Source: Nitrospira sp. (GTDB lineage: Bacteria; Nitrospirota; Nitrospiria; Nitrospirales; Nitrospiraceae). Taken from it: a DNA stretch of 14,816 nt. Below are positions 4,130 to 14,816 of the stretch, in pieces. The notes below the pieces were generated by a model that was not told the origin of the DNA, did no database searches, and saw only the letters and a list, made by a program, of their open reading frames with translations. The DNA is taken from positions 1-14,816 of the forward strand of contig JANYAJ010000313.1 in the NCBI GenBank assembly GCA_025361385.1, in the 5' to 3' direction. How positions within the stretch are numbered: the stretch's first letter is position 1; each line of letters begins with the position of its first letter. The position numbers and the translations under genes were made by a program.

Positions 4130-4166
4130 CAAAAAGAAAGAGGGGGTGGGTTACCCCCACCCCCTC
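4130..4166 (-). terminator. Rho-independent terminator of the bd-like oxidase/cytochrome operon
   Basis: On the minus strand a perfect 11-base-pair stem is formed by GAGGGGGTGGG (4166-4156) and CCCACCCCCTC (4150-4140), with a five-base loop. It is followed at once by TTTCTTTTT. It lies 34 bases past the stop of the last cytochrome gene and only about 20 bases before the mobA start region. Promoter room for mobA is therefore almost absent, unless its promoter overlaps the terminator or some transcripts read through. Confidence 0.92.
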
Positions 4167-4199
4167 ATGCTTTTCCAGACGCTCTCGCTCAGATGAACG

Positions 4200-5975
4200 T
4201 TAGAGGGTCTTTCCCTTCCGCTTGTTCGATCGTCTCGTGAGGACCCACCCTTCGAGGAGGACCACACCAAAGGCAATCACAACCGGATAGATGTAGGCTT
4301 CGCGAGGCGTCGGCGGCTCCAGGAAGGTGTAGTAGAAGGCCGAAACGGCCATCTTCCGTCCTGCGTCGCCATTGTGGCCGTCCCAAGCGAAGAACACCGT
4401 GGGAATGTACTGTCCCATTTCGAAGAAAGTATCTTCGTCGTAATCCTGATCCTTCTTGTTTCCCAAAGGACGCTGAATGATGACCGTCCAACGTCCATTT
4501 TTCCACTCTGAGTGAAGAATCTTGATGTTCTCTTCGTAGGTATCGCGTTGGGTGAAGTCCTTGTCCCATCCGGTACCTTCAAAGGCACGGAGTGAGCCAT
4601 CAGCTTCCCACTTCACAATATCAACAGGGAACTGCTCATTGCTGCCGAACAGATACCGTGGCTTAATCGGCGCCGGAAGTTCTTTCCACTTCACGGCCGT
4701 TTGCATCGCGATCGCATCGTTGTACACCGTGTAGTTATTCTGATGCGAGGCAATCGAACCCTCTTCGCCAGTCTTCGGATCTTGTTCTTTGACATCGACA
4801 TTCACGGATGTCGGCGCCCAAGGCAACTTCCCTTCGGCCACGCTCTTCGTCCGGTCGTCCCACTGGAACATGAATACGACATGTTTGTCGTTGTAGAGAG
4901 ACTTCACCCAAATATCGTCGATCCGATTCACGAAGTTTCTTGGCTTGTGGGTGATCTGACCACCCATTGCCACATACCGTCTGGCCCGATTCTTCCACAA
5001 TTCATGCTCTGGATCTGCAGGAATCTCTCCCTCAACCACCCCTGACGACACCACGAAGTTGATCTTCGGCTTGTCCGCCAACGGATCGATAGAAAGGGGC
5101 TTCCCGTCAGCTTCGCGCTCGCACAACGAGTTTACGAAGTTGGCAATGTGCCATCGCTCTTCAACCGTGCTGTTGTCAGCGAACGAAGGCATCGGCGTGC
5201 CGTTGACTCCGGTTGAAAACGTCCGGAAAATGTTTTTGACGTTGTAGGGATCCTGGCGGCTGCCCCTGAAGTTCCAGCACTTGTGCCAATTGGCAGGCTG
5301 AATCGAAAAGCCCCAATCGTCTTTCAGATTGAACGCATTACCGTCGCCACGGCCTTCAGCGCCGTGACATTCCACGCACTTCTTCTCGACGATGAGCTCT
5401 GCGCCCTTCTTTAAACTCTCTTCTGACACGGCAATCGGCTTCAGTTCGTCCAATTGCAACACGGTCTGGCTCTCGGACTGCTTATCCGTAAACTTCCGGT
5501 CTTTCACCAGCTGGGTGGTCACGAAAGACAATACTTGTAGTCGTTGCTCTTCCGTCAGAATACCTTCCCAGGATGGCATGGCTGAACCAGGCAGACCATG
5601 CGTGACGGTCTCAAATAGATCGTTCTGACCAGGAATGGGTTTCTTGGCATCGAACAAGGGCAACTCACCGCTGGCCGTGCGTCGAATCTTGAACGTGCCC
5701 TGGTTGAAGTTACGAGGGCGAGGCCAGAGACGATCTGCGCCAGGTCCATCACCTGCACCATCCACGCCGTGACACCAGACACACTTGGTAAAGTACACCC
5801 GCTTGCCTGCCTCAATCATGTCGGCAGCAGGCTCAGGCGATAATTCAGCCTTCTTGAAACCCTCAGGAAGGGCATCTGCTGCAAACGCTACGCCCCCGGT
5901 GCTTCCGGAGACCAGGATAATTCCAAAGGCAGTCGCGAGGAGCGCCCCCGCCTTCAGACTAAACGAATTCTTCAT
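4200..5975 (-). CDS. Diheme cytochrome c with C-terminal ethylbenzene-dehydrogenase-gamma/NxrC-like domain
   Basis: A 591-residue exported, C-terminally anchored electron carrier. A signal peptide spans about residues 1-32 and ends AFAA. Two cytochrome c domains follow: CVWCH at 65-69 with likely Met ligand Met133, and CVECH at 200-204 with likely Met262. Residues about 305-555 resemble the heme-b-binding gamma subunit of ethylbenzene dehydrogenase and NxrC. A single membrane span at 561-579 is followed by a basic tail. ATG 5975 is chosen over ATG 5987 because GAGGG lies five bases before it and the signal peptide then has normal length. It is the last gene of the operon, 50 bases after the monoheme cytochrome gene. 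Its likely job is to pass periplasmic electrons between a donor such as nitrite oxidoreductase and the oxidase; the partner is inferred. Whether heme b is bound cannot be told from sequence. Confidence 0.88.
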   Translation of the reverse strand: MKNSFSLKAGALLATAFGIILVSGSTGGVAFAADALPEGFKKAELSPEPAADMIEAGKRVYFTKCVWCHGVDGAGDGPGADRLWPRPRNFNQGTFKIRRTASGELPLFDAKKPIPGQNDLFETVTHGLPGSAMPSWEGILTEEQRLQVLSFVTTQLVKDRKFTDKQSESQTVLQLDELKPIAVSEESLKKGAELIVEKKCVECHGAEGRGDGNAFNLKDDWGFSIQPANWHKCWNFRGSRQDPYNVKNIFRTFSTGVNGTPMPSFADNSTVEERWHIANFVNSLCEREADGKPLSIDPLADKPKINFVVSSGVVEGEIPADPEHELWKNRARRYVAMGGQITHKPRNFVNRIDDIWVKSLYNDKHVVFMFQWDDRTKSVAEGKLPWAPTSVNVDVKEQDPKTGEEGSIASHQNNYTVYNDAIAMQTAVKWKELPAPIKPRYLFGSNEQFPVDIVKWEADGSLRAFEGTGWDKDFTQRDTYEENIKILHSEWKNGRWTVIIQRPLGNKKDQDYDEDTFFEMGQYIPTVFFAWDGHNGDAGRKMAVSAFYYTFLEPPTPREAYIYPVVIAFGVVLLEGWVLTRRSNKRKGKTL

Positions 5976-6025
5976 GGTTTCCCTCATGTCGTAAATCCAG
6001 GTTGGCTAGAAATTCCCGTGAACGA

Positions 6026-7063
6026 TTAGTCCCAGGTTCGGGGGTAATACCCCGTGTGCCAATATTCGAACAAGATCACTTTCCAGATTTCGTCTACAGT
6101 CAAATGCTGTTCCCACGGTGGCATCACAGAGGCCCAGGGGAAGCCTTCGTTGGGCAACCCGATTCCACCCTTTGAGACGCGCCAGAAAATAAACGTTTCC
6201 TGTAACTGTGCAATCGTTCCCGGATCAGTAAAGTTCGCAGGAATTGGATTGAACGCGAATGCATGGAGACCGCGACCGTTCAGGTTATCGCCGTGGCAGA
6301 AGTGGCAGTTTTGGAAGAAGATCTCTCCCCCCTCACGCACATACTTGAGATATCCTTGCGCGTCTTTATCCCAGGGATTGGCGTTCGGCTTCATCAACCG
6401 ACCCATGCCCTGCTCCACAATGTTCGCATTGCTATATTCCTGATCGAACTTCCCTTCGAGGTTGACACGATAGGGGTTCTGCGACGTTTGAAGTGTATAC
6501 GTCTTTCCATGGACCTTGGTGCTAGCCGGTGGCGCCGGATGCACCGTGCGCAACTCGATGGGCTCCTCAGACTTCGGCACCATGGCGTTATAGGAGAACC
6601 CGCCGATCAGAAGGGGCAACAGAACTAGATAGGCATAACGCAGCAATTTGTTTGCCCCGGTCTGGGCATCCAAAATATTCATGATCGGCTGCTTGAACTT
6701 CTTCCAGTCTTCCTCGTTCGCTGAGACCCACATAAACACGGCTATGAGCGACACGGTTCCGTACATAGCGCGAACGCTGAACGGAATCGGCGGATAGACC
6801 CGAAACTTCAAATACAGGAGAATGAACGACCAAAAGAGAATCCCTTGCCAGAAGCGAGGGACGGCCATTCCCATGGAACCCAACATATAGCTCAACCCTG
6901 TAAATCCCGCGACAAACAGCGTGAGCTCAAAGAGCACTTGCATGGGCATATAACCTTCGACCAGGCGCACCGTATTTGACGGAATGATATCGACAATCAT
7001 TCCGGCAAGCAGGAGTATCCCAACTGCGCCTATGAGTGCCGCGACTGACATTAATGCTTTCAT
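6026..7063 (-). CDS. Membrane-integral monoheme cytochrome c
   Basis: A 345-residue protein with an N-terminal membrane part and a periplasmic cytochrome c domain. Hydrophobic spans are visible at about 4-26, 43-64, 72-90, 98-114 and 143-160. They are followed by a linker and a heme site CHFCH at 253-257, with Met314 in SVMPPW as the likely sixth ligand. ATG 7063 is preferred to ATG 7087 because AAAGGGAG lies seven bases upstream of it. The gene lies 43 bases after the diheme cytochrome and 50 before the NxrC-like gene, so cotranscription is likely. The role as electron relay to the bd-like oxidase is inferred from context. I do not recognise a named family for the membrane part. Confidence 0.87.
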   Translation of the reverse strand: MKALMSVAALIGAVGILLLAGMIVDIIPSNTVRLVEGYMPMQVLFELTLFVAGFTGLSYMLGSMGMAVPRFWQGILFWSFILLYLKFRVYPPIPFSVRAMYGTVSLIAVFMWVSANEEDWKKFKQPIMNILDAQTGANKLLRYAYLVLLPLLIGGFSYNAMVPKSEEPIELRTVHPAPPASTKVHGKTYTLQTSQNPYRVNLEGKFDQEYSNANIVEQGMGRLMKPNANPWDKDAQGYLKYVREGGEIFFQNCHFCHGDNLNGRGLHAFAFNPIPANFTDPGTIAQLQETFIFWRVSKGGIGLPNEGFPWASVMPPWEQHLTVDEIWKVILFEYWHTGYYPRTWD

Positions 7064-7106
7064 CGGCGAACTCCCTTTGCTGAACAAAAGAGGTAGACAG
7101 ACACGA

Positions 7107-8420
7107 TTATGAAATCTTCGGTGGTGGCGATCCCGCCTTCACCTGCGACAAATAGTCGACGATCTTCTTAAGCGCCCCGGCGCTGAGCTTCTGCCCGAAC
7201 ACCTTGGGCATCGTATTGTCCGGGAATGGTTTCACCACATACGTGCTGGGTGAAACGATCGACTCCATAATGTAATCCGGAACAGTCTTGGCTGTTCCCT
7301 TATAGTCCTTGTCCTTGATGCGAAGAGGAGCATTCGTGCCTTCTTCGAGTTTAGGACCAATCGTACCAACCGCTCCAGGAATGCCAGGGATCGTGTGGCA
7401 AGACACGCACTGAGCCTTTGCTAAAATCTGATCCACCGGCTCAGTTCCATCTGCCAGCAAGGCGCTTGGCGGCCCGGCGGCCTTCTCATCCTGCTGCTTC
7501 GGACGGTCGGCTTCTGGAATAAACTTCTCATACGACTTCACGATCTCTTCGTATGTCGGAGCGTCTCGCCCTTCGCGGATATAGAGCCACGTATCAACAG
7601 CCGCCAACTCTGGGAGACTCAGCGAAATCGGTGGCTTGTGGATGGCAGGCATCGGGCTCTCTTTATCGTTCGTACCCTTTACGCCAAAGCCGGCAACGAC
7701 GTAACAGCTCGGGCAGGAGTGGGACTCTGCGATATACTCTTGGCCACTTTCTGCAGTGCCCGCGCCAGGAAATGCTTCCTTCTGAGCATAGTCTCTACCT
7801 GCTGGCTTTCCCTTGCTGTACTTAGGATCTTCCAGCCGCTCTTTACCTGCACGCTCAGGAATACCGTCAAGATTTGGGGCACGCTCTCCCAGCATTCCTT
7901 TGTGGAACGCATGACACAGTGGACATTGCCCTTTTCCAATCGCGCCCTGAACCTTATTTTGCCCGATCCCACCGAAGATGATCTTCTCACCCTCGTCGGC
8001 CAACTGCTGCGCGGTCATCGCTTCATATTGAAGCTTCTCTTCTTTCGGGGGAAACCCACCTTCGACCTGCGGCAACCAATTGCCATACCCTGATAAGCCA
8101 GCAGCAACAAGGAACATGAAGCCGCCGATCTTGAGCAATGCGGCTTGATTGGGGAAGTAGATCCCCATCATGAAGCACATTGACGTGATAAGAACTAGAG
8201 AGACTGGCAGCATCCGATTCGCTTCATAGAAGCTGTTCTTGTAATGCGCAATTGCCACCAACAGCATGAAGGCTGCAATGATGCCAATAAACAGCTTGAA
8301 GGTTGCGCGTTTTTTTGCAGCAGGATCGCTAATCGATACCAGGGAATACACGAGAAGCCCCGCGAGAAGCGCGAGCAGCGGCCACCCTATTGAAATCGCT
8401 TCGTTTATCAGATCGCCCAC
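7107..8420 (-). CDS. Membrane-anchored diheme cytochrome c
   Basis: A 437-residue protein with four N-terminal membrane spans (about 8-29, 42-60, 71-89, 96-113) and two periplasmic cytochrome c domains. Heme sites are CPLCH at 166-170 and CVSCH at 338-342; likely Met ligands are Met257 and Met404. The domains look like tandem copies: YIAES...YVV before the first Met aligns with YIMES...YVV before the second. The first copy has an extra Cys pair (236 and 239) that is not a heme site. The start is GTG at 8420-8418, since AGGAGG lies eight bases upstream; a longer frame from GTG 8459 has no binding site and adds no membrane sequence. An 82-base gap containing a strong hairpin separates it from the oxidase gene upstream. 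Electron transfer to the oxidase is inferred. Confidence 0.88.
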   Translation of the reverse strand: MGDLINEAISIGWPLLALLAGLLVYSLVSISDPAAKKRATFKLFIGIIAAFMLLVAIAHYKNSFYEANRMLPVSLVLITSMCFMMGIYFPNQAALLKIGGFMFLVAAGLSGYGNWLPQVEGGFPPKEEKLQYEAMTAQQLADEGEKIIFGGIGQNKVQGAIGKGQCPLCHAFHKGMLGERAPNLDGIPERAGKERLEDPKYSKGKPAGRDYAQKEAFPGAGTAESGQEYIAESHSCPSCYVVAGFGVKGTNDKESPMPAIHKPPISLSLPELAAVDTWLYIREGRDAPTYEEIVKSYEKFIPEADRPKQQDEKAAGPPSALLADGTEPVDQILAKAQCVSCHTIPGIPGAVGTIGPKLEEGTNAPLRIKDKDYKGTAKTVPDYIMESIVSPSTYVVKPFPDNTMPKVFGQKLSAGALKKIVDYLSQVKAGSPPPKIS

Positions 8421-8447
8421 GATTGTAACCTCCTGAGGTTTTGGTAA

Positions 8448-8478
8448 GAGTAGAGGCACGTACCACGCGCCTCTACTC
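8448..8478 (-). repeat. Intercistronic hairpin between oxidase and diheme cytochrome genes
   Basis: In the minus-strand RNA, GAGUAGAGGCGCG (8478-8466) pairs with CGUGCCUCUACUC (8460-8448) around a five-base loop. This gives 13 pairs including one G-U pair. The wobble works only in the minus-strand RNA; on the other strand that position is a mismatch, fitting a role in this transcript. No U-run follows, so it is not a standard terminator. It may stabilise the upstream oxidase message, mark a processing site, or cause partial termination. Confidence 0.75.
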
Positions 8479-8502
8479 CCCCAAGCAAGATCCTAAAGAT
8501 GA

Positions 8503-10416
8503 TCAGTGGCTCCCAGCTGGCTGTGCAGCGCCACCAGGAACCCCTGCCTTTGCTTCAACTGGCGCCTTCTTTACCCCCAGGCTACCCAGCCAGAAGACAA
8601 AGAGAATGCTGATCCAGAAGAACAACACATTGAATGAAATCATGTTTGCTGCAAATCCCACCGTATGGGTATAGGCCCAAGGTGAGTTGTCGCGCATAAT
8701 CTCATTCACGTGCCAGAATAATCGAACCGATGAGCGAATGTACCCCATCAACCCCATCATCCAGGTAAAGGCCGTCGCGAGCATAATTAACGCATATTGC
8801 GAACGAGCCGAGATCTTCCCCCATTCGATGGGCCCCATCTGCTTCGCACCCTTCATCATAAAGCTGTTGAGCGCAAACATGAAGAAGAGGCAGGATAGGG
8901 TTGTCGCCACCTGAGGAACAGATAGACCGACTCGCACGTTTGCCGGAATATAATATCCCAGAACCGCGAGTCCGACGATATTCACGTAGGCGCAACCGAA
9001 GAAGCAGCCCATGAAGATATTGCCAAACTTCGACCAGGATACCGTCGAGACCTTGTTGCCTCGCATGTACCAAACGAAGCTCAGAATGGTGGTTGTGATA
9101 ATGACGTTGATGCCACCGTTCTTAGCCGACATGACGCCATAGTTCCCCAACACCGGGTGCTGCTGCCCACCCATCGCCTTGAGCTCAGCGGGAGTCATGA
9201 CAATCGTGTGAGGAGTAATGAACACCAGGTAGCCGCAACAGAGGACGAACACGAGATACTTGATGTAGCGTTGATACTTCTCGGCACCACGCATCCGGCC
9301 GAGAGCCTGCCAAAGATAGTAGTTGGTGCTGAGGAAGAGAATGCCGATCATCGTAGCCTGAATGATGAAGAGCCAAGCCAGAAGACCGCCCATGAGGGTA
9401 ATGCCCATCTGCTGACGATAGGCATACACTTCACGCATCAGCCAATACCCGGCAAATGGCAAGGGGATCAAGAACGCCACGCCGAGCGCCATGGCGATAT
9501 AACCCATCCAATCATAGTGCGCACGATCTTCATCGGTCTTGGAGGCCAAGAACTTATACGCCGCATAGGCCGCCACGACACCGCCACCGAACGCCATGTT
9601 ACCCAAAATGCGATGCACATTGAGCGGATTCCAGAGCGCGGTATGAATGACGTGCCAGATGTTCCCCAGATACCGCCCCTGCTCATCGACGCCAGCAGGC
9701 GACATCATGAAACCGATCCAGGAATTCGCCAGGAACATGAGCAACGTTCCAATCACGTTCAAAATGACGGACATGCTCAAGTGAATCCACTTGAGGAACC
9801 CTTCCCGCATCTTGTCCCAGCCGTAATAATAGATGTAGAGGGTTCCGCTCTCCGCCACGAACATCAATGCATAGATATGCATGACCGGGCGGAAAATGCT
9901 GGATAAGTACCCGAAGAATGCCGGATAGAGCGTCAGGAAGGTGAAGAGCAGAATACCACCGAGAATGGCGGTCAGCGAATAGGCCGTCAAACTGATCTTA
10001 ATGAAGTCGTAGGCCAGCTGGTCATACCGCTTGGCCATCGCCTTGTCCCTCGTCACCACCCCCATGAACTCGATGACCATGCAGAAAATCGGAACCGCGA
10101 GCACAAAACTTCCGTAATAGAGGTGCTGCTGATTTGCGAACCAGAGCAACACGCGGCTCTCGAAGTTGTACCGCGGATAATCCCGAGGACCATCGACCGT
10201 CTTCGGAGCAGGAGCCCCGGCAACGATACCCTCGGTCTTATAATAAACGTCTCTCCCCTTCTCAACCTTCGCCTCACCATCCTTTTTCACCGCATCAGGC
10301 GCATCCGCGCCCATAGCCAGTGTTGGAAGCGATACGGCGATGGGGAGCAGGAGAAGGCCAATCATCGCGCAAAGCGCCATGATTGAGAACAGCTTCTTCC
10401 CAGCCACTAAACCCAT
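8503..10416 (-). CDS. Cytochrome bd-like oxidase, large membrane subunit (Nitrospira type)
   Basis: A 637-residue inner-membrane protein with about 14-15 spans. It opens with a signal-like span (about 10-33) and a roughly 55-residue hydrophilic segment not usual in CydA. The CydA-like half follows. His98 in NQQHLYYGSF matches the b595 ligand region. VAESGTLYIYYYGWDKM around 187-203 resembles the conserved LEST...FFGWDR stretch, and ANSWIGFMMSP resembles ANGWMQHP. His268 in NVHRILGNM resembles the b558 ligand. The GRQPW motif of standard CydA is absent. The C-terminal half is unlike CydA but shared with the second copy in this window, including His403, His420 and His569. Known Nitrospira bd-like oxidases are proposed terminal oxidases with unusual cofactors; the cofactors here cannot be read. 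ATG 10416 is chosen for AAGGAGG six bases upstream over ATG 10473, which lacks one. Confidence 0.9.
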   Translation of the reverse strand: MGLVAGKKLFSIMALCAMIGLLLLPIAVSLPTLAMGADAPDAVKKDGEAKVEKGRDVYYKTEGIVAGAPAPKTVDGPRDYPRYNFESRVLLWFANQQHLYYGSFVLAVPIFCMVIEFMGVVTRDKAMAKRYDQLAYDFIKISLTAYSLTAILGGILLFTFLTLYPAFFGYLSSIFRPVMHIYALMFVAESGTLYIYYYGWDKMREGFLKWIHLSMSVILNVIGTLLMFLANSWIGFMMSPAGVDEQGRYLGNIWHVIHTALWNPLNVHRILGNMAFGGGVVAAYAAYKFLASKTDEDRAHYDWMGYIAMALGVAFLIPLPFAGYWLMREVYAYRQQMGITLMGGLLAWLFIIQATMIGILFLSTNYYLWQALGRMRGAEKYQRYIKYLVFVLCCGYLVFITPHTIVMTPAELKAMGGQQHPVLGNYGVMSAKNGGINVIITTTILSFVWYMRGNKVSTVSWSKFGNIFMGCFFGCAYVNIVGLAVLGYYIPANVRVGLSVPQVATTLSCLFFMFALNSFMMKGAKQMGPIEWGKISARSQYALIMLATAFTWMMGLMGYIRSSVRLFWHVNEIMRDNSPWAYTHTVGFAANMISFNVLFFWISILFVFWLGSLGVKKAPVEAKAGVPGGAAQPAGSH

Positions 10417-10497
10417 GGGATACCTCCTTAATGCATTCCGGAAAAGACTCATCACAATTCCCTGCAAACTCAACTCAGCACAGAATAGACCTAGAAC

Positions 10498-10620
10498 CTA
10501 CTTCCGGAACAAATACCAGAAGTCCAGCCCCTGCGAATCCATCAAAAAGTGATCCACTGCCGTGAAGTAGGCGACGCAAATAACGAGCGACACCACCACG
10601 TAAACGATTGTCTGACCCAT
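10498..10620 (-). CDS. 40-residue single-span membrane protein, probable oxidase accessory subunit
   Basis: A short gene starting ATG 10620 with GAGGGAGGG six bases upstream and ending TAG. The product begins MGQTIVYVVVSLVICVAYF, one membrane span at about 4-22, followed by a short tail with acidic, aromatic and basic residues (AVDHFLMDSQ, then GLDFWYLFRK). It lies 81 bases before the bd-like oxidase start and 62 after the other small gene, same strand. Size, single span and position recall CydX/CcoQ-type small subunits of terminal oxidases, but the sequence is not recognisably homologous to them. The strong ribosome binding site and the operon position argue for a real gene; function is inferred. 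Confidence 0.78.
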   Translation of the reverse strand: MGQTIVYVVVSLVICVAYFTAVDHFLMDSQGLDFWYLFRK

Positions 10621-10682
10621 GAGAATCCCTCCCTCACAACTTGCAGACGTTCAAGAAATCCCAGAAATACAGCGGCCCTCTT

Positions 10683-10805
10683 TTAGCAGGGGCACTGAAT
10701 TCCTGCGAACCAATAAAAAAACCACAAACCTGCCGCACAGGTAATGTAGAAAATCATCCGACCGACCTTAACCTTAAACTCGCTATCTGCCACTACTGTT
10801 GCCAT
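10683..10805 (-). CDS. 40-residue single-span membrane protein, first gene of the oxidase operon
   Basis: Starts ATG 10805 with AAGGAG five bases upstream and ends TAA. The product has a hydrophilic start MATVVADSEFKVKVGR and one aromatic-rich membrane span at about 17-36. It ends in a Cys-Pro-Cys tail (GIQCPC). It is the first gene after the consensus promoter and precedes the other 40-residue gene and the oxidase. The N-in topology suggested by Lys and Arg before the span would put the terminal Cys-Pro-Cys on the periplasmic side, where it could form a disulfide or bind metal; this is inference. It may be a small oxidase subunit or assembly factor. No named family is recognised. Confidence 0.75.
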   Translation of the reverse strand: MATVVADSEFKVKVGRMIFYITCAAGLWFFYWFAGIQCPC

Positions 10806-10860
10806 CGTGTCTCCTTCTCCTGATGGAAATAATACGCGCCTAATTCAGCTCAGCGAATTC

Positions 10861-10889
10861 TTGACACACAGATATTCATATGTTATTCA
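10861..10889 (+). promoter_or_regulatory. Putative promoter for the plus-strand small gene
   Basis: A perfect -35 box TTGACA (10861-10866) is followed after 17 bases by TATTCA (10884-10889), a weak -10 matching at three positions. A start near 10896 would give a roughly 32-base leader before ATG 10928. It faces the operon promoter on the other strand, and the two transcripts would overlap by about 50 bases. Confidence 0.35.
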
Positions 10890-10927
10890 AAATTCTTTGC
10901 CGCACACGAAATATCAGGGGAAAATCG

Positions 10928-11032
10928 ATGATTGCAAACTCAAAAGTGTTCGACATTATAGTTTTGGCTGGAATGGTTGTCAATATAATTTTGGCCGTGT
11001 TCCTCATTCTCTACCACTTTGATTTGTTGTAG
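10928..11032 (+). CDS. Possible 34-residue single-span membrane protein on the opposite strand
   Basis: The only plausible plus-strand gene. ATG 10928 follows AGGGG with seven-base spacing, and the frame ends TAG at 11032. The product is MIANSKVFDIIVLAGMVVNI and then a continuing hydrophobic stretch ending YHFDLL: a single span at about 9-29 with polar ends. The DNA overlaps the consensus promoter of the oxidase operon on the other strand. A T-rich sequence can give a hydrophobic reading by chance. A plausible promoter, a well-placed binding site and a clean start-span-stop layout favour a real gene. Function is unknown; the location suggests a further small respiratory protein, or a product whose transcription interferes with the operon promoter. 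Confidence 0.5.
   Translation: MIANSKVFDIIVLAGMVVNIILAVFLILYHFDLL
10955..10983 (-). promoter_or_regulatory. Consensus sigma70-type promoter of the bd-like oxidase operon
   Basis: On the minus strand TTGACA (10983-10978) and TATAAT (10960-10955) are separated by exactly 17 bases, matching the full sigma70 consensus at all twelve positions. Transcription would begin near 10948, leaving an untranslated leader of about 143 bases before the first 40-residue gene. It implies strong, largely constitutive expression of the respiratory operon. It sits inside the plus-strand 34-residue frame. Confidence 0.8.
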
Positions 11033-11041
11033 ATTTCTCTT

Positions 11042-11083
11042 GGTTTCAGGCTCCAGTTCCGCGCTCATTTCACACCTGAAACC
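11042..11083. repeat. Inverted repeat at the end of the second SUMF1-like gene
   Basis: GGTTTCAGG (11042-11050) and CCTGAAACC (11075-11083) are perfect nine-base inverted copies separated by 24 bases, overlapping the stop codon of the minus-strand SUMF1-like gene. Neither side is followed by a T-run. It could be a weak or factor-assisted terminator between the convergent small plus-strand gene and the minus-strand operon, or an operator; the role is undetermined. Confidence 0.4.
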
Positions 11084-11943
11084 GCACAGCGAAATCCAAT
11101 AGTTTCATCGCGAAAGTCCTGAACCATCTTGCTCCGGCTGGTGATACGAATATCAGCCCCTGTGGTCGCGTATCCTCCCCCTCTGAGCGCCCGAAAGGTG
11201 CCATATTCAGGGCTCTGCGGGTTTCGTTCAGGCGCTTCATTGAAGTAGGTCTCCGCATACCAGTCACCCACCCACTCCATAACGTTTCCTGCCCCATCCA
11301 TGACGCCATACGGGCTCGTATCGGTCAGGACGGCACCGACCGGCGCGGCGACCTCATAGCCATCCTGCACCCTGGCCCAATTCGCTCCATTGGGCTGCTC
11401 CACGTTGCCCCAGGGCCAGAGACGGCCATCCGTTCCTCGCATCGCCTTTTCCCACTCCGCCTCGGTGGGAAGCCGTTTTCCCTTCCAATGGCAAAACGTC
11501 TCCGCATCGTCCCATGACACGTACACCACGGGCTGATTAATACCGCGCATCCTGCTCATATTCTTGGCGTAGCGGGAAGGAGGACCAGACTTACGGTGGC
11601 CGGTCGCATCGACGAATTGCTGATATTGAAAATTCGTGACTTCGTATCGATCGATCGAAAACGCATCGAGCACCAACGTGCGCTGCGGCCGTTCATCGAA
11701 TCCGCCGTGATCGGTCCCCCGAATGAAGGGCCCTGCCGGGATTGAGACCATCTCTTCCCGAACCGGCTCTTCACGAGAAACCTGCGAAGGATCCAGCGGC
11801 TCCGGTGTGGATGAATCGGTGGAATCAGGGGAAGCTAATTCGAACGGGGTGAGCGTCGTGCCGCGAATAATTCCCATAATGGGAAGTGCCGCAAACGCGA
11901 GAACGGCAAGCAAGAACACAATCTTAAATTTGGTTTCGAGCAT
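11065..11943 (-). CDS. Membrane-anchored SUMF1/FGE-fold protein (second of a tandem pair)
   Basis: A 292-residue protein with one N-terminal span (about 7-28), a Ser/Pro/Glu-rich linker to about 62, and a formylglycine-generating-enzyme-fold domain. Family marks seen are SIPAGPFIRGTD, IDRYEVTNFQYQQFV, VSWDDAETFCHWKGKRLPTE, AEWEKAMRGTDGR, GNVMEWVGDWY, RALRGGGY and the terminal GFRCAV. True FGE uses a pair of Cys after the RGGS segment to oxidise sulfatase cysteines. Here that region, ATTGADIRITSRSKM, has none, so enzyme activity of that kind is unlikely. The gene starts five bases after the previous SUMF1-like gene and lacks a clear binding site, suggesting translational coupling. Such domains also occur in binding or scaffold proteins; a role in the cell envelope beside the oxidase is inferred. 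Confidence 0.85.
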   Translation of the reverse strand: MLETKFKIVFLLAVLAFAALPIMGIIRGTTLTPFELASPDSTDSSTPEPLDPSQVSREEPVREEMVSIPAGPFIRGTDHGGFDERPQRTLVLDAFSIDRYEVTNFQYQQFVDATGHRKSGPPSRYAKNMSRMRGINQPVVYVSWDDAETFCHWKGKRLPTEAEWEKAMRGTDGRLWPWGNVEQPNGANWARVQDGYEVAAPVGAVLTDTSPYGVMDGAGNVMEWVGDWYAETYFNEAPERNPQSPEYGTFRALRGGGYATTGADIRITSRSKMVQDFRDETIGFRCAVSGVK

Positions 11944-11948
11944 GTCTG

Positions 11949-12872
11949 TTATGACGCCGCAGGGCTATCGCCAACCTCCATATCGCTTGCACAGCGAAAC
12001 CCGATCGTAATATCCGTCCGCCAATGCTTCGCCGCAAATCGCTTGGAGAGCCGGGCGTTATGCTCGGTCTCTCGCCACGACCCCCCACGCACCACCTTCA
12101 AATCGACATCGTCCGGCCCCTTCGGGTCACGGTAGGGCGCTTTCTGGTAGTAATGCTCATCGTACGAATCTGCGACCCATTCCGCGACGTTTCCCGTCAT
12201 GTCATAGATTCCATAGGGGCTTCTTCCGGATTTGAACGACCCCGGAGGCGCGAGATACCGATAGCCATCCTCACTCCCATCCACATTGGCATTCGCATGC
12301 CCCGTGACGAATATATCGCCCCACGCGTACTTCCGTTTTCCCTCACCACGGCCGGCCTTTTCCCATTCCGCTTCCGTGGGCAGGCGCTTTCCCGCCCATT
12401 TGCAATAGGCCCCCGCTTCATCCCACGACATACTCATCGCCGCAAACTCCGGCTTCAGCAGCTTGGATTGATCGTCTTCAAACACTTCGATTTTGGGTAA
12501 CGACCGCTTCGTCATTTTGGCGAACCGGGCATATTCCTCTTGCGACACCTCTCTCTTGTCCAGAAAGAACGCCTTGAGAAACACTTGCCGCTCCGGCACT
12601 TCGTCGGGATCGCCATCTTTGCTGCCCATGATGAACGGACCTTCGGGGACCTGCACCATCTCGCGGCCCTCATCGCCCATCTTCGTTTTATACATCGAGT
12701 AGTCCTGCGACGCGACACTGCTCGGCACAAGACGAGTCTCCGTCGTGATCGACAAGGCCAGCGCCTTCATCTGCTTCGCCTTGTAAGACTCGTAGACCAA
12801 CAGGCCAACCATCAGGATAAACGATCCAAAGACAAATACGATCGAGCCGATAAGTACTTTCCTATCTTCCAT
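11949..12872 (-). CDS. Membrane-anchored SUMF1/FGE-fold protein (first of a tandem pair)
   Basis: A 307-residue protein with one span at about 7-28 and an extracytoplasmic SUMF1-like domain from about residue 72. Motifs include QVPEGPFIMGSKDGDPDE, LDKREVSQEEYARF, MSWDEAGAYCKWAGKRLPTE, AEWEKAGRGEGKR, GNVAEWVADSYDEHYY, VVRGGSWRETE and terminal GFRCAS. As in its neighbour, the segment after RGGSW holds no Cys, so the copper-site pair of true FGE is absent. The start is ATG 12872; GAAGGAG lies eleven bases upstream and overlaps the end of the preceding membrane-protein gene. The two tandem proteins share layout but are clearly diverged, suggesting an old duplication. Function is unknown beyond the fold. 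Confidence 0.85.
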   Translation of the reverse strand: MEDRKVLIGSIVFVFGSFILMVGLLVYESYKAKQMKALALSITTETRLVPSSVASQDYSMYKTKMGDEGREMVQVPEGPFIMGSKDGDPDEVPERQVFLKAFFLDKREVSQEEYARFAKMTKRSLPKIEVFEDDQSKLLKPEFAAMSMSWDEAGAYCKWAGKRLPTEAEWEKAGRGEGKRKYAWGDIFVTGHANANVDGSEDGYRYLAPPGSFKSGRSPYGIYDMTGNVAEWVADSYDEHYYQKAPYRDPKGPDDVDLKVVRGGSWRETEHNARLSKRFAAKHWRTDITIGFRCASDMEVGDSPAAS

Positions 12873-12878
12873 GACGGC

Positions 12879-13277
12879 TCATGCTCCTTCAATTGTGCGT
12901 GACACGGAGGGATCAGCCGGCTCAGATGCGGCCTTCCTGGCCGCGTACATATCTAAGAGCATCGAAATCTGCACGCCCAGAAATCCGCCCATCGCAGCGC
13001 CAGCCCCCGCACCGACCGATATTCTCTCAGGACCGGCGATAAACCAGGCCAGCGCCCCGCCCAGTAACGTTCCCACCAAGATACTCACCAGAAAACGCCG
13101 CCCCCCCATAAACCCAATGACACCGCCGAGTACCAGCCCAGTCCCACTCGCAAGCGGCAATATACTGCCGCCCATAATGACCCCGATAAGCGTTCCGACT
13201 GTTCCCATGACGGCCACGCCAAACAGGATATCGAGCATCGCGCGGGGCGCAACTTGTTCCGTACCAGACTCGGTCAT
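12879..13277 (-). CDS. Small glycine-rich multi-span membrane protein
   Basis: A 132-residue protein of unknown function. About four hydrophobic segments (roughly 15-37, 41-57, 62-80, 86-108) are rich in Gly, Ala and Val with many GxxxG-type spacings, such as GGVIGFMGG and [13 protein letters not shown]. This is the pattern of glycine-zipper membrane proteins. Both ends are hydrophilic. ATG 13277 lies 20 bases after the DUF3047-like gene ends and has no strong binding site, so coupling is possible. It ends six bases before the first SUMF1-like start. The position within the second oxidase operon is the only functional hint. Confidence 0.72.
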
Positions 13278-13297: not shown

Positions 13298-13981
13298 TTA
13301 GCGGCCAGCGCTCGCAACCATCGATCCAAAGTCGATTTCCACCCCAGGGCCCGCAATGATCGAAATACCCCAGGCTTTCGCCGCCGGCTCATGCTGGTGA
13401 ATCCGCTTGAAATCTTCATAGACGTTCACGCGCTCCTCAAACCACTGACCAACATCCGTGGTGCCGCTTTGCACCACGATCTCCGAGCCGCTGAACATGC
13501 CTCCTTCAGTCACCGTCCCCTCAGGCTTCAAGGCACTCCAGATATACTTCGTGAACACAGGGATAAACATGAGATCCGTATCCAGGGAAGCGTAGATCGC
13601 CGCAATCGGTTCAGTTCCCGCCGTCGCGGATTTGTGCAGGCGCCAGCGCCAGGTCAGGACCGGAAAGGCCTTCGGGTCCCAATCGATCTTCTTCTTCTTG
13701 ATTCTCTGTCCTGCATCCTTCGCCGCCAGAAAACTTACACCGTTCTCGGTCTGAACTTTATAGGCATCCCGCCCCTTGGACTGACTTCGTTGATTTTCAT
13801 GATCCCAATTCAAGGGAAACCCGTCTGCGTCTTTTGCCTGAAAATCTTCGAGAATCAAAGACGGATTTTGGGCCGAGACCGCTCCCTGCATCACGAAGCT
13901 TCCACAGATAACCAGCCCGACTGCGAGATATCGTCGAATCATCGCCCCTCGCCTCATACGCTCAACCCTTTCGCTGTTCAT
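13298..13981 (-). CDS. Exported DUF3047-like protein
   Basis: A 227-residue protein with a basic N-terminus and a signal peptide ending near AVSAQ (about residues 15-38). The mature part has the LTWRWRLH segment (about 109-116), IYASLDTD and a VNVYEDFKRIHQ stretch that fit the DUF3047 family, a probable beta-sandwich of unknown function. The annotated ATG 13981 overlaps the stop of the oxidase gene by four bases (ATGA) with AAGAGG just before it, which indicates translational coupling. ATG 13942 or 13957 would give a more typical signal peptide and cannot be excluded. Being exported and coupled to the oxidase suggests a role on the periplasmic side of that complex; this is inferred. Confidence 0.7.
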   Translation of the reverse strand: MNSERVERMRRGAMIRRYLAVGLVICGSFVMQGAVSAQNPSLILEDFQAKDADGFPLNWDHENQRSQSKGRDAYKVQTENGVSFLAAKDAGQRIKKKKIDWDPKAFPVLTWRWRLHKSATAGTEPIAAIYASLDTDLMFIPVFTKYIWSALKPEGTVTEGGMFSGSEIVVQSGTTDVGQWFEERVNVYEDFKRIHQHEPAAKAWGISIIAGPGVEIDFGSMVASAGR

Positions 13982-14816
13982 GCCTCTTGCGACGACGACG
14001 GCGCCAGAACCGTCGCGCTTCCTTCGGCCAAGTCTTCACCCATCACAGGCAACTGATCACGCTGACACATCCAGAAGAGCGCGAACACCGCCCCCCAGAA
14101 CACCACCATGTTGAGCGTCACCATCTTCGCCGCAAACGCCAAATCCGGCGTAAACGCCCAGGGAGAAACATCGGCCATCACCTCACTCACATGCCAGGCC
14201 AACCGCCCGGACGAGCGAATATAACCCATGAGACCCATGACCCATGAGAAGGCAGCCGCCAGTCCGAATAGGCCCACCATGCCTCTGACCGAGATCTTCC
14301 CCCATTGGACCGGCCCACGAACGAGCGCCCCCTTAAGCATCATGCGATTGATCACCAGCGCGCCCACCAGAACCGTGAACGTCGTCACCGCCTGCGGCGA
14401 CGACAACCCGACGCGAAGCTTCGCCGGCAGATAGAACCCATAGACCGAGAGACAGATAATGTTGAGTGCACCGACCAGGAACAGCGCGCCGATCAGAAAG
14501 TTTCCTTTCTTCACCCAGGAGACAACCATCGTTCGATTTGCGCGCCGATAGTAGATGAAGCTCAGCGTGGTCACGAGAATCAAGATATTGACTGCGCCGT
14601 TCTTCGCCGACATCACTCCATAGTTGCCGACCACGGGATGCGACGAACCGCCCATCGCCTTCACTTCACTGCCCGACATCATGACGGTGTGCGGCGTCAG
14701 CCAAATAAATAGAGCCAAGATCAAGACCCCGAGCAACGACTGGTAATACGGCTGATACCGTTCACCGCCACGAAGGCGCGCCATGCTCTGCCACAGGTAA
14801 TAATTCACGCCAAGAA
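13978..14816 (-). CDS. Second cytochrome bd-like oxidase, C-terminal part (cut by window edge)
   Basis: The frame enters from beyond the window edge; about 279 C-terminal residues are present. It aligns without large gaps to residues from about 362 of the full-length oxidase in this window. Shared stretches include NYYLWQ, TPHT, KAMGG, HPVxGNYGVMSAKNG, WGKIS, MGLMGYIRSS and WHVxE, with roughly half of positions identical by eye. His residues matching 403, 420 and 569 of the other copy are kept. The tail is short, acidic and unlike the other. GTG 14808 is an internal Val codon, not a start. The gene overlaps the DUF3047-like gene by four bases and heads a block with no cytochrome c genes inside this window. 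It may be a specialised isoform. Confidence 0.88.
   Translation of the reverse strand, partial: LGVNYYLWQSMARLRGGERYQPYYQSLLGVLILALFIWLTPHTVMMSGSEVKAMGGSSHPVVGNYGVMSAKNGAVNILILVTTLSFIYYRRANRTMVVSWVKKGNFLIGALFLVGALNIICLSVYGFYLPAKLRVGLSSPQAVTTFTVLVGALVINRMMLKGALVRGPVQWGKISVRGMVGLFGLAAAFSWVMGLMGYIRSSGRLAWHVSEVMADVSPWAFTPDLAFAAKMVTLNMVVFWGAVFALFWMCQRDQLPVMGEDLAEGSATVLAPSSSQEA

What the first reader, a model, noticed from the sequence alone, without database searches (positions are those of the whole stretch)
4130..10983. Compact oxidase operon joining a bd-like core, five c-type hemes and an NxrC-like domain
One consensus promoter and one strong terminator frame six genes: two tiny membrane proteins, a bd-like oxidase, a diheme and a monoheme membrane cytochrome c, and a diheme protein fused to an EBDH-gamma/NxrC-like domain. 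Classical cytochrome bd takes electrons from quinol and has no c-type partners. This layout suggests a cytochrome-c-fed bd-like enzyme or supercomplex, possibly fed straight from nitrite oxidoreductase.
Basis: partly seen in the sequence, partly recalled or inferred. Interest (0 to 1): 0.78.

Follow-up and report, generated by a model that had tools for sequence, protein, structure and literature searches.

The report
Conserved Nitrospira bd-like/cytochrome c respiratory operon
A strongly conserved and already described Nitrospira gene cluster encodes a likely membrane electron-transfer complex; related bacteria without the nitrite-oxidising enzyme carry it too, and its "nitrite-oxidoreductase-like" part has lost the residues that hold the heme in its relatives.

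Summary
In detail: six minus-strand genes between a perfect sigma-70 promoter and a hairpin terminator. Gene order, promoter (34 of 34 loci of Nitrospirales families f1-f3) and terminator (37 of 38 loci) are conserved. The cluster is in print: alt_nxrC_2, two cytochromes c and bd-like_3 of N. moscoviensis, with relatives in Nitrospina and anammox bacteria.

New, as far as my searches show:
(1) None of 24 Nitrospiria genomes outside the NXR-bearing families has an NXR beta subunit; 21 of them carry a long match to the cluster's monoheme gene, and the core was read in 20.
(2) The NxrC-like domain has lost both heme-b ligands in Nitrospiria and Nitrospinota (Met155 kept in 0 of 45, Lys305 in 0 of 44 scorable); 45 of 45 anammox and other NXR-locus copies keep both.
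(3) An opposite-strand 34-residue membrane peptide overlaps the promoter.

Best reading: an NXR-independent, cytochrome c-linked membrane complex, most likely exchanging electrons between cytochrome c and quinone. Oxygen reduction stays a strong rival: two near-complete genomes have no other recognised oxidase, and the published classification may make this the partner subunit of an oxidase. "Fed straight from NXR" is not supported for the Nitrospira type, though elsewhere the genes adjoin nxrAB.

The parts
10955..10983 (-). sigma-70 promoter TTGACA-17-TATAAT, 12 of 12
   Evidence: exact site in 34 of 34 loci of Nitrospirales families f1-f3
10928..11032 (+). tiny3: opposite-strand 34-aa single-helix peptide that contains the promoter
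   Evidence: 25 sequences: variable sites by codon position 10/2/24 in the last 30 codons; median dN/dS 0.09; relatives, f4 and 14 of 17 class loci
10683..10805 (-). tiny1: 40-aa single-helix peptide (WFFYWF motif)
10498..10620 (-). tiny2: 40-aa single-helix peptide (QGLDYFYLFR-type end)
8503..10452 (-). bd-like CydA homologue, 649 aa from the ATG (656 from an upstream TTG, numbering used in this report); bd-like_3 of the literature
7107..8459 (-). membrane diheme cytochrome c with an extra CPxC[YF] motif
6026..7063 (-). membrane monoheme cytochrome c (345 aa; about five N-terminal helices in a low-confidence model)
4200..5987 (-). diheme cytochrome c fused to an EBDH-gamma/NxrC-like domain and a C-terminal helix (alt_NxrC_2); both heme-b ligand positions changed
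4140..4166 (-). intrinsic terminator
   Evidence: terminator-like hairpin in 37 of 38 loci
11065..11943 (-). FGE/SUMF1-like protein, conserved neighbour
11949..12872 (-). second FGE/SUMF1-like protein, conserved neighbour
12879..13277 (-). 132-aa protein, conserved neighbour
13298..13981 (-). DUF3047 protein, conserved neighbour
13978..14816 (-). second bd-like gene (taken to be bd-like_4 of the literature), cut by the window end
   Evidence: PMC6606698 passages

Best explanation
The operon encodes one membrane complex: a CydA-like (OR-N type) core with b hemes, a membrane diheme and a membrane monoheme cytochrome c, a membrane-anchored diheme protein with a dead NxrC-like domain, and two single-helix micropeptides. 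Electrons pass along five c-type hemes, mostly of His/Met type and so probably of high potential, on the periplasmic side to or from the b hemes. The most likely reaction is exchange between the cytochrome c pool and the quinone pool; in nitrite oxidisers it would run uphill from cytochrome c to quinone at the cost of the proton motive force. The NxrC-like domain of the Nitrospira/Nitrospinota type carries no heme b and serves as a docking or structural part. Shown by computation: the genes and their signals, their conservation, their presence without NXR, the changed ligand positions. Inferred: that the proteins form one complex, that the heme sites are filled as drawn, the absence of heme b, the quinone reaction and its direction.
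For: Order bd-diheme-monoheme-altC: 17 of 20 Nitrospirales loci hold all six genes (two others are cut by contig ends, one is a second partial copy); 17 of 17 loci of other Nitrospiria orders hold the four-gene core (one bd cut by a contig end, one altC in two pieces); 14 Brocadiales loci near nxrB; 7 Nitrospinota and 6 Scalindua loci with no NXR gene in the stretch fetched. NXR-independent. Anammox bacteria, called strictly anaerobic in PMC3578206, keep it. Ligands Met155/Lys305 of KsNXR-C: Met155 kept in 0 of 45 and Lys305 in 0 of 44 scorable Nitrospiria + Nitrospinota copies; both kept in 45 of 45 others. Core: H117 and H287 match canonical CydA heme ligands; fold matches CydA; Gln at 438, not the His of the HHP paralogue. 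Reverse electron flow by this cluster was suggested before (PMC6606698, PMC3578206, passages).
Against: No quinone site was identified; PMC3578206 says all canonical quinol residues are lacking. G218 and G315 (96 and 95% complete) have this bd-like gene as their only CydA-superfamily match and no COX1 over the cut-off. PMC10839748 places all but a few Nitrospinota CydA sequences in OR-N1 or OR-N2, taken to pair as an oxidase, so this protein may be the OR-N1 partner; untested. Scalindua is reported to reduce O2, credited to a cbb3 oxidase (PMC13253579, passages). The models are of low confidence (mean pLDDT 59.5 and 59.1). Other heme ligation is not excluded.
Confidence: 0.38

Rival explanations
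1. A cytochrome c-fed oxygen (or NO) reductase, or its second subunit: the OR-N core, alone or paired with an OR-N2 protein (CydAA'), reduces O2 with electrons from the cytochromes c.
For: OR-N proteins are held to be cytochrome c-oxidising O2 reductases, OR-N1 pairing with OR-N2 (PMC10839748, PMC12342949, passages). G218 and G315 have no other CydA-superfamily match at 1e-5 and no COX1 over the cut-off (G315 has a 28.9-bit piece). In eight genomes of families f4-f6 no CydA scores as canonical (best 78.9 bits) and none has the HHP paralogue. His ligands of the CydA N-half are kept.
Against: Kept in anammox bacteria. Gln at 438 in 44 of 44 Nitrospiria and Nitrospinota copies and Tyr in 19 of 19 readable anammox copies, where 17 of 17 close orthologues of the putative oxidase have His-His-Pro. 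14 of 18 class genomes have that paralogue beside it, which as a pair would also fit this rival.
Confidence: 0.32
2. A membrane anchor and electron outlet of nitrite oxidoreductase: altC binds NXR and the cytochromes pass the electrons on.
For: On the same strand 4.6-6 kb upstream of nxrB in 14 Brocadiales loci; monoheme gene directly before nxrA-nxrB in 10 of 10 proteobacterial loci. Heme-b ligands kept in those versions. Strong expression in N. moscoviensis (PMC6606698, passages).
Against: No NXR beta subunit in 24 of 24 genomes tested outside the NXR-bearing families, 21 of which have a long match to the monoheme gene. Ligands lost in the Nitrospira type. PMC6606698 itself calls a direct interaction questionable because of expression levels.
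Confidence: 0.15
3. Two forms with two jobs: the anammox/proteobacterial form works with NXR, and the Nitrospiria/Nitrospinota form serves other or several high-potential donors. This can hold together with any of the above.
For: The ligand-keeping and ligand-lacking forms do not overlap; Nitrospinota bd-like sequences fall among NXR-less Nitrospiria in the quick tree (support 96). Mn(II)-oxidising relatives carry a bd-like complex called TO_1 (PMC9040806, passages), which may be this cluster or the bd-like_1/2 region.
Against: The tree is a quick one with long branches flagged by the program; the root is unknown, so which form came first is open.
Confidence: 0.15

Closest known systems
alt_nxrC_2 / two cytochromes c / bd-like_3 cluster of Nitrospira moscoviensis (PMC6606698) and its relatives in N. 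defluvii, Nitrospina and Kuenenia (PMC3578206)
   Same: Same gene content: an alternative NxrC with two hemes c, two cytochromes c and a bd-like protein, with a second bd-like gene near; I take the window to be a member (no N. moscoviensis sequence was compared).
   Different: The passages read do not mention the tiny genes, the promoter, the heme-b ligands of this domain or NXR-less relatives; they infer a role in nitrite oxidation from conservation.
Canonical cytochrome bd (CydAB, qOR)
   Same: N-terminal CydA half, H117 and H287; fold match.
   Different: No CydB gene in the operon, no GRQPW motif, C-terminal half without detectable CydA sequence match; cytochromes c in the operon.
OR-N1/OR-N2 CydAA' (NIDE0901-like) putative terminal oxidase
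   Same: Same superfamily; shared His, Met and Gln residues with the own-genome HHP paralogue L003, taken to be OR-N2-like by its His-His-Pro.
   Different: Gln at 438 in place of the second His. Whether it is the OR-N1 type was not tested.
NXR gamma subunit (KsNXR-C, 7b04) and EBDH gamma (2ivf)
   Same: Homologous domain (profile match to residues 43-318 of 322 of NXR-C, 1.7e-51).
   Different: Fused to a diheme c module and a helix; Met155 and Lys305 both replaced in the Nitrospira type.
Kuenenia-type diheme cytochrome of PDB 6h5l chain B (deposited as conserved hypothetical cytochrome protein; organism recalled)
   Same: Matches the N-terminal diheme module of altC (4.1e-40).
   Different: A separate 226-residue chain; its partner is recalled, not looked up.
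CydX-type small subunits of bd oxidases
   Same: Similar size (37 aa in E. coli, PMC4325964, abstract start in a listing), single helix, beside a CydA homologue.
   Different: No homology was shown; three peptides, one on the other strand.

Membership tests
alt_NxrC / bd-like cluster of nitrite oxidisers and anammox bacteria | bd-like, diheme, monoheme and alternative NxrC genes in one run | tested here: met
alt_NxrC / bd-like cluster of nitrite oxidisers and anammox bacteria | restricted to organisms with NXR | tested here: not met
   core read in 20 loci of genomes without an NXR beta match (17 class, 3 f4); genomes are 73-99% complete
Cytochrome bd superfamily (CydA) | PF01654 match over the cut-off | tested here: met
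   71.6 bits against 26.2
Cytochrome bd superfamily (CydA) | His ligands equivalent to E. coli H19 and H186 (numbers recalled) | tested here: met
   (H117 and H287 by profile alignment)
Canonical quinol-oxidising cytochrome bd | GRQPW motif and CydB partner | tested here: not met
   motif absent from the protein, no CydB gene in the operon
OR-N2-like putative terminal oxidase | His-His-Pro motif (its Gln replacement noted in PMC8026999) | tested here: not met
OR-N1 subunit of a CydAA' oxidase | placement in the published OR-N tree | not tested
   Murali et al. 2021 is not held; no reference OR-N sequences were at hand
NXR/EBDH gamma subunit | EB_dh domain | tested here: met
NXR/EBDH gamma subunit | Met and Lys axial ligands of heme b | tested here: not met
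NXR gamma subunit | physical association with NxrAB | not testable with these tools
   needs protein work
CydX-like small subunits | part of the purified complex | not testable with these tools
   only conservation, dN/dS and position were tested

The most novel reading that the evidence does not exclude
The Nitrospiria/Nitrospinota form is a respiratory complex of its own kind: an NXR-independent cytochrome c:quinone oxidoreductase built on a bd-oxidase fold, with a heme-less 'pseudo-NxrC' scaffold and, in much of Nitrospiria, two or three micropeptide subunits, driven in Nitrospirales by one of the few perfect sigma-70 promoters of the genome, which is written into the coding sequence of an opposite-strand peptide gene. 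It would be the entry point for reverse electron flow in organisms living on high-potential donors.
Probability: 0.24. Interest if true: 0.78.

Novelty: new variant of a known kind. Interest (0 to 1): 0.48.

Why it matters
The role of this cluster in nitrite oxidisers is open, and its conservation has been taken as a sign of a part in nitrite oxidation (PMC3578206, PMC6606698). Its presence in relatives without NXR and the lost heme-b ligands take away two grounds for calling it an NXR subunit. The function becomes testable in a simpler frame: does the complex exchange electrons between cytochrome c and quinone, or reduce oxygen? The dual-coded promoter and the conserved micropeptides give precise targets for expression and complex analysis.

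Tried and rejected
The CPSCY motif of the diheme protein as a third heme site: rejected. It is kept as CPxC[YF] in 38 of 38 Nitrospiria and 7 of 7 Nitrospinota copies, but it has no His, anammox and proteobacterial copies lack it, and by my own comparison with the second domain it stands in the loop before the axial Met.

The promoter match as a mere by-product of the opposite-strand ORF: rejected, with a caveat. The four codons under the hexamers are invariant to the third base in 25 of 25 sequences while most codons around them vary. These 25 were drawn from loci with the exact site; as 33 of 33 loci scanned without that condition have it, the filter dropped none of families f1-f3, but f4 and class loci, which mostly lack the site, are not in the test, and 9 of the 34 loci were missed by the script's start rule.

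Canonical CydA features in the C-terminal half: no sequence match found. The fold comparison lists ActC and PsrC below the CydA rows; with a low-confidence all-helical model I take nothing from that. The model of the monoheme protein was not searched.

The large protein database could not be searched. The careful tree did not finish; the quick one was used.

Rows dropped: L224 is the genome of L123; L215/L216 that of L051 (same contig and place); L132 and L167 (partial ORFs) and L131 (below the E cut) were left out of the ligand counts, which take the best hit per locus; L040 is not scorable for Lys305, L083 for either; L220 is partial. Of the 24 genomes, G252 and G352 match only part of the monoheme gene, G008 only at 1.4e-5, and G298 was not fetched. 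The name UBA2166 for family f4 is inferred from PMC12342949, not read from a label.

Papers: passages of PMC6606698, PMC3578206, PMC8026999, PMC8115632, PMC8387239, PMC10839748, PMC12542776, PMC13253579, PMC9040806; of PMC12342949 passages, section 23 whole and part 1 of section 16; PMC4325964 as a listing. Statements that something is not in print rest on the searches and on those passages; Luecker 2010, de Almeida 2011 and 2016 and supplementary tables were not seen.


Full report
What is there. On the minus strand, from 10805 down to 4200, lie six genes: two 40-aa single-helix peptides, a bd-like protein, a membrane diheme cytochrome c, a membrane monoheme cytochrome c, and a diheme protein fused to an EB_dh (EBDH-gamma/NxrC-like) domain with a C-terminal helix. 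There are five CXXCH motifs. The bd-like protein matches Pfam CydA only over residues 106-353. A 12-of-12 sigma-70 site stands at 10983-10955 and an 11-pair terminator at 4166-4140.

Is it more than chance? Yes. Of 20 loci from across the order, 17 have all six genes in the same order; the other three are a second partial copy (L047) or cut by contig ends (L040, L054). The wider block bd4-DUF3047-p132-FGE-FGE-tiny1-tiny2-bd3-diheme-monoheme-altC-mobA is kept in 15 of the 20. The monoheme gene has a match at E <= 1e-3 in 117 of 117 Nitrospirales genomes, some of them weak or over the cytochrome domain only. The promoter is exact in 34 of 34 loci of families f1-f3 and in 0 of 2 of f4 that hold the region; of the class loci only L070 and L071 have one near the operon. 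In 33 loci scanned without asking for it the best site was always 12 of 12, and 0 of 1650 mononucleotide shuffles reached that. Six genomes carry 1 to 5 exact sites each, this one among them every time. A terminator-like hairpin follows altC in 37 of 38 Nitrospiria loci (no shuffles were run there).

A third peptide. The promoter lies inside an opposite-strand ORF, 10928-11032, for a 34-aa single-helix peptide. In 25 sequences its last 30 codons vary at 10, 2 and 24 sites by codon position, with median dN/dS 0.09 over 271 pairs. The four codons under the hexamers (ATT ATA and GTT GTC) are invariant in 25 of 25, third bases included, although Ile, Val, Ala and Gly codons elsewhere in the peptide vary. 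The 25 were drawn from loci with the exact site; since 33 of 33 loci scanned without that filter have it, I read this as selection on both the peptide and the promoter in families f1-f3. The peptide is found in all Nitrospirales loci that hold the region, f4 included, and in 14 of 17 class loci, some of them distant; no convincing match came from Nitrospinota, anammox or proteobacterial loci. tiny1 and tiny2 are found in part of the class.

Who has the cluster. Seventeen loci from other orders of the class Nitrospiria all hold bd-diheme-monoheme-altC in that order (one altC is in two pieces and one bd is cut by a contig end). Of 80 loci kept from a scan for NXR beta genes (180 relatives found, the best 80 kept), 14 of Brocadiales have the run on the same strand 4.6-6 kb upstream of nxrB, with nxrA further downstream in 13, and 10 proteobacterial ones have bd-diheme-monoheme directly before nxrA-nxrB and an EB_dh gene after them. 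Nitrospinota (7 loci) and Scalindua (6 full loci from 5 genomes) hold the four genes in stretches without NXR genes. Of the 20 genomes searched there, G435, G439 and G441 had no match, and G437, G438 and G440 only a cytochrome-domain match.

NXR is not needed. Among 395 Nitrospirota genomes, 137 have an NxrA match at E <= 1e-60; none of these is a same-class genome outside the order, while 20 such class genomes match the monoheme gene, 18 over a long stretch. In 24 genomes (those 20 and four of family f4) 13 have any NXR beta match at 1e-5, the best 2.3e-13 over short pieces of 52 to 119 residues in the iron-sulfur region, which I take for other ferredoxin-type proteins. Three f4 genomes have a long monoheme match, G008 only a weak one. 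PMC12342949 likewise calls UBA2166 the only NXR-less family of the order and two other Nitrospiria orders NXR-negative (section 23 read). Against over-reading: genomes are 73 to 99% complete.

The NxrC-like domain. KsNXR-C holds its heme b with Met155 and Lys305 (PMC8387239, passage). Aligned to it, the window has Phe and Met there. Met155 is kept in 0 of 38 scorable Nitrospiria copies (39 examined) and 0 of 7 Nitrospinota; Lys305 in 0 of 37 and 0 of 7. Both are kept in 15 of 15 Brocadiales, 24 of 24 other EB_dh proteins near nxrB (one from a Nitrospira lenta NXR locus among them) and 6 of 6 Scalindua copies. These counts are not independent: they may reflect a single loss. PMC3578206 describes the domain as heme-b binding in the Nitrospina alternative NxrC proteins; for this type that now looks doubtful.

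Oxygen? Twenty-one of 24 of these genomes have no COX1 over the cut-off, and 14 of 22 keep a close orthologue of the HHP paralogue. G218 and G315 have no other CydA-superfamily match at all, and none of eight genomes of f4-f6 has a canonical-scoring CydA. PMC10839748 places all but a few Nitrospinota CydA in OR-N1 or OR-N2, thought to pair as a CydAA' oxidase; the present protein may be the OR-N1 partner, which I could not test. These are the best grounds for the oxidase rival. Presence in anammox bacteria is the best evidence against it, though Scalindua is reported to reduce O2 with a cbb3 oxidase (PMC13253579).

What it most likely does. Most heme domains show CXXCH followed by MP at a fitting distance (monoheme 76 of 76; diheme both sites 62 of 74; altC both sites 59 of 67; pattern counts), as in high-potential hemes. 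A cytochrome c:quinone exchange fits aerobic nitrite oxidisers, anammox bacteria and NXR-less relatives alike; it was proposed before for reverse electron flow (PMC6606698, PMC3578206). I give it 0.38, because no quinone site is known and direction is inferred.

Known or new. The cluster is known. I found no mention of the ligand loss, of the peptides or of the dual-coded promoter in the passages read and the searches made. A bd-like complex in Mn(II)-oxidising relatives that lack nitrification genes is in print as TO_1 (PMC9040806), but whether TO_1 is this cluster I could not tell.

Noticed in passing
window 10928-11032 (+): Opposite-strand 34-aa membrane peptide gene whose coding sequence contains the operon's promoter; convergent with the FGE-like gene that ends at 11065.
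   Followed up: yes
window 7107-8459 (residues CPSCY of the diheme protein): CPxC[YF] pair beside the axial Met of heme 1, kept in Nitrospiria and Nitrospinota and absent from anammox and proteobacterial copies; possibly a disulfide or a metal site.
   Followed up: partly
window 11065-12872: Two FGE/SUMF1-like proteins stand beside the operon in Nitrospirales; at least one FGE-like gene is near in 14 of 17 class loci; role unknown.
   Followed up: partly
L123, L127, L129, L130, L131, L133, L134, L135, L140, L144: Alpha-, beta- and gammaproteobacterial MAGs carry bd-diheme-monoheme directly before nxrA-nxrB of the anammox/Nitrospira type: possible unrecognised nitrite oxidisers or nitrate reducers.
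   Followed up: partly
   Followed up: partly
G218, G315: Two near-complete Nitrospiria genomes whose only CydA-superfamily match is this bd-like gene and which have no heme-copper oxidase over the cut-off.
   Followed up: partly
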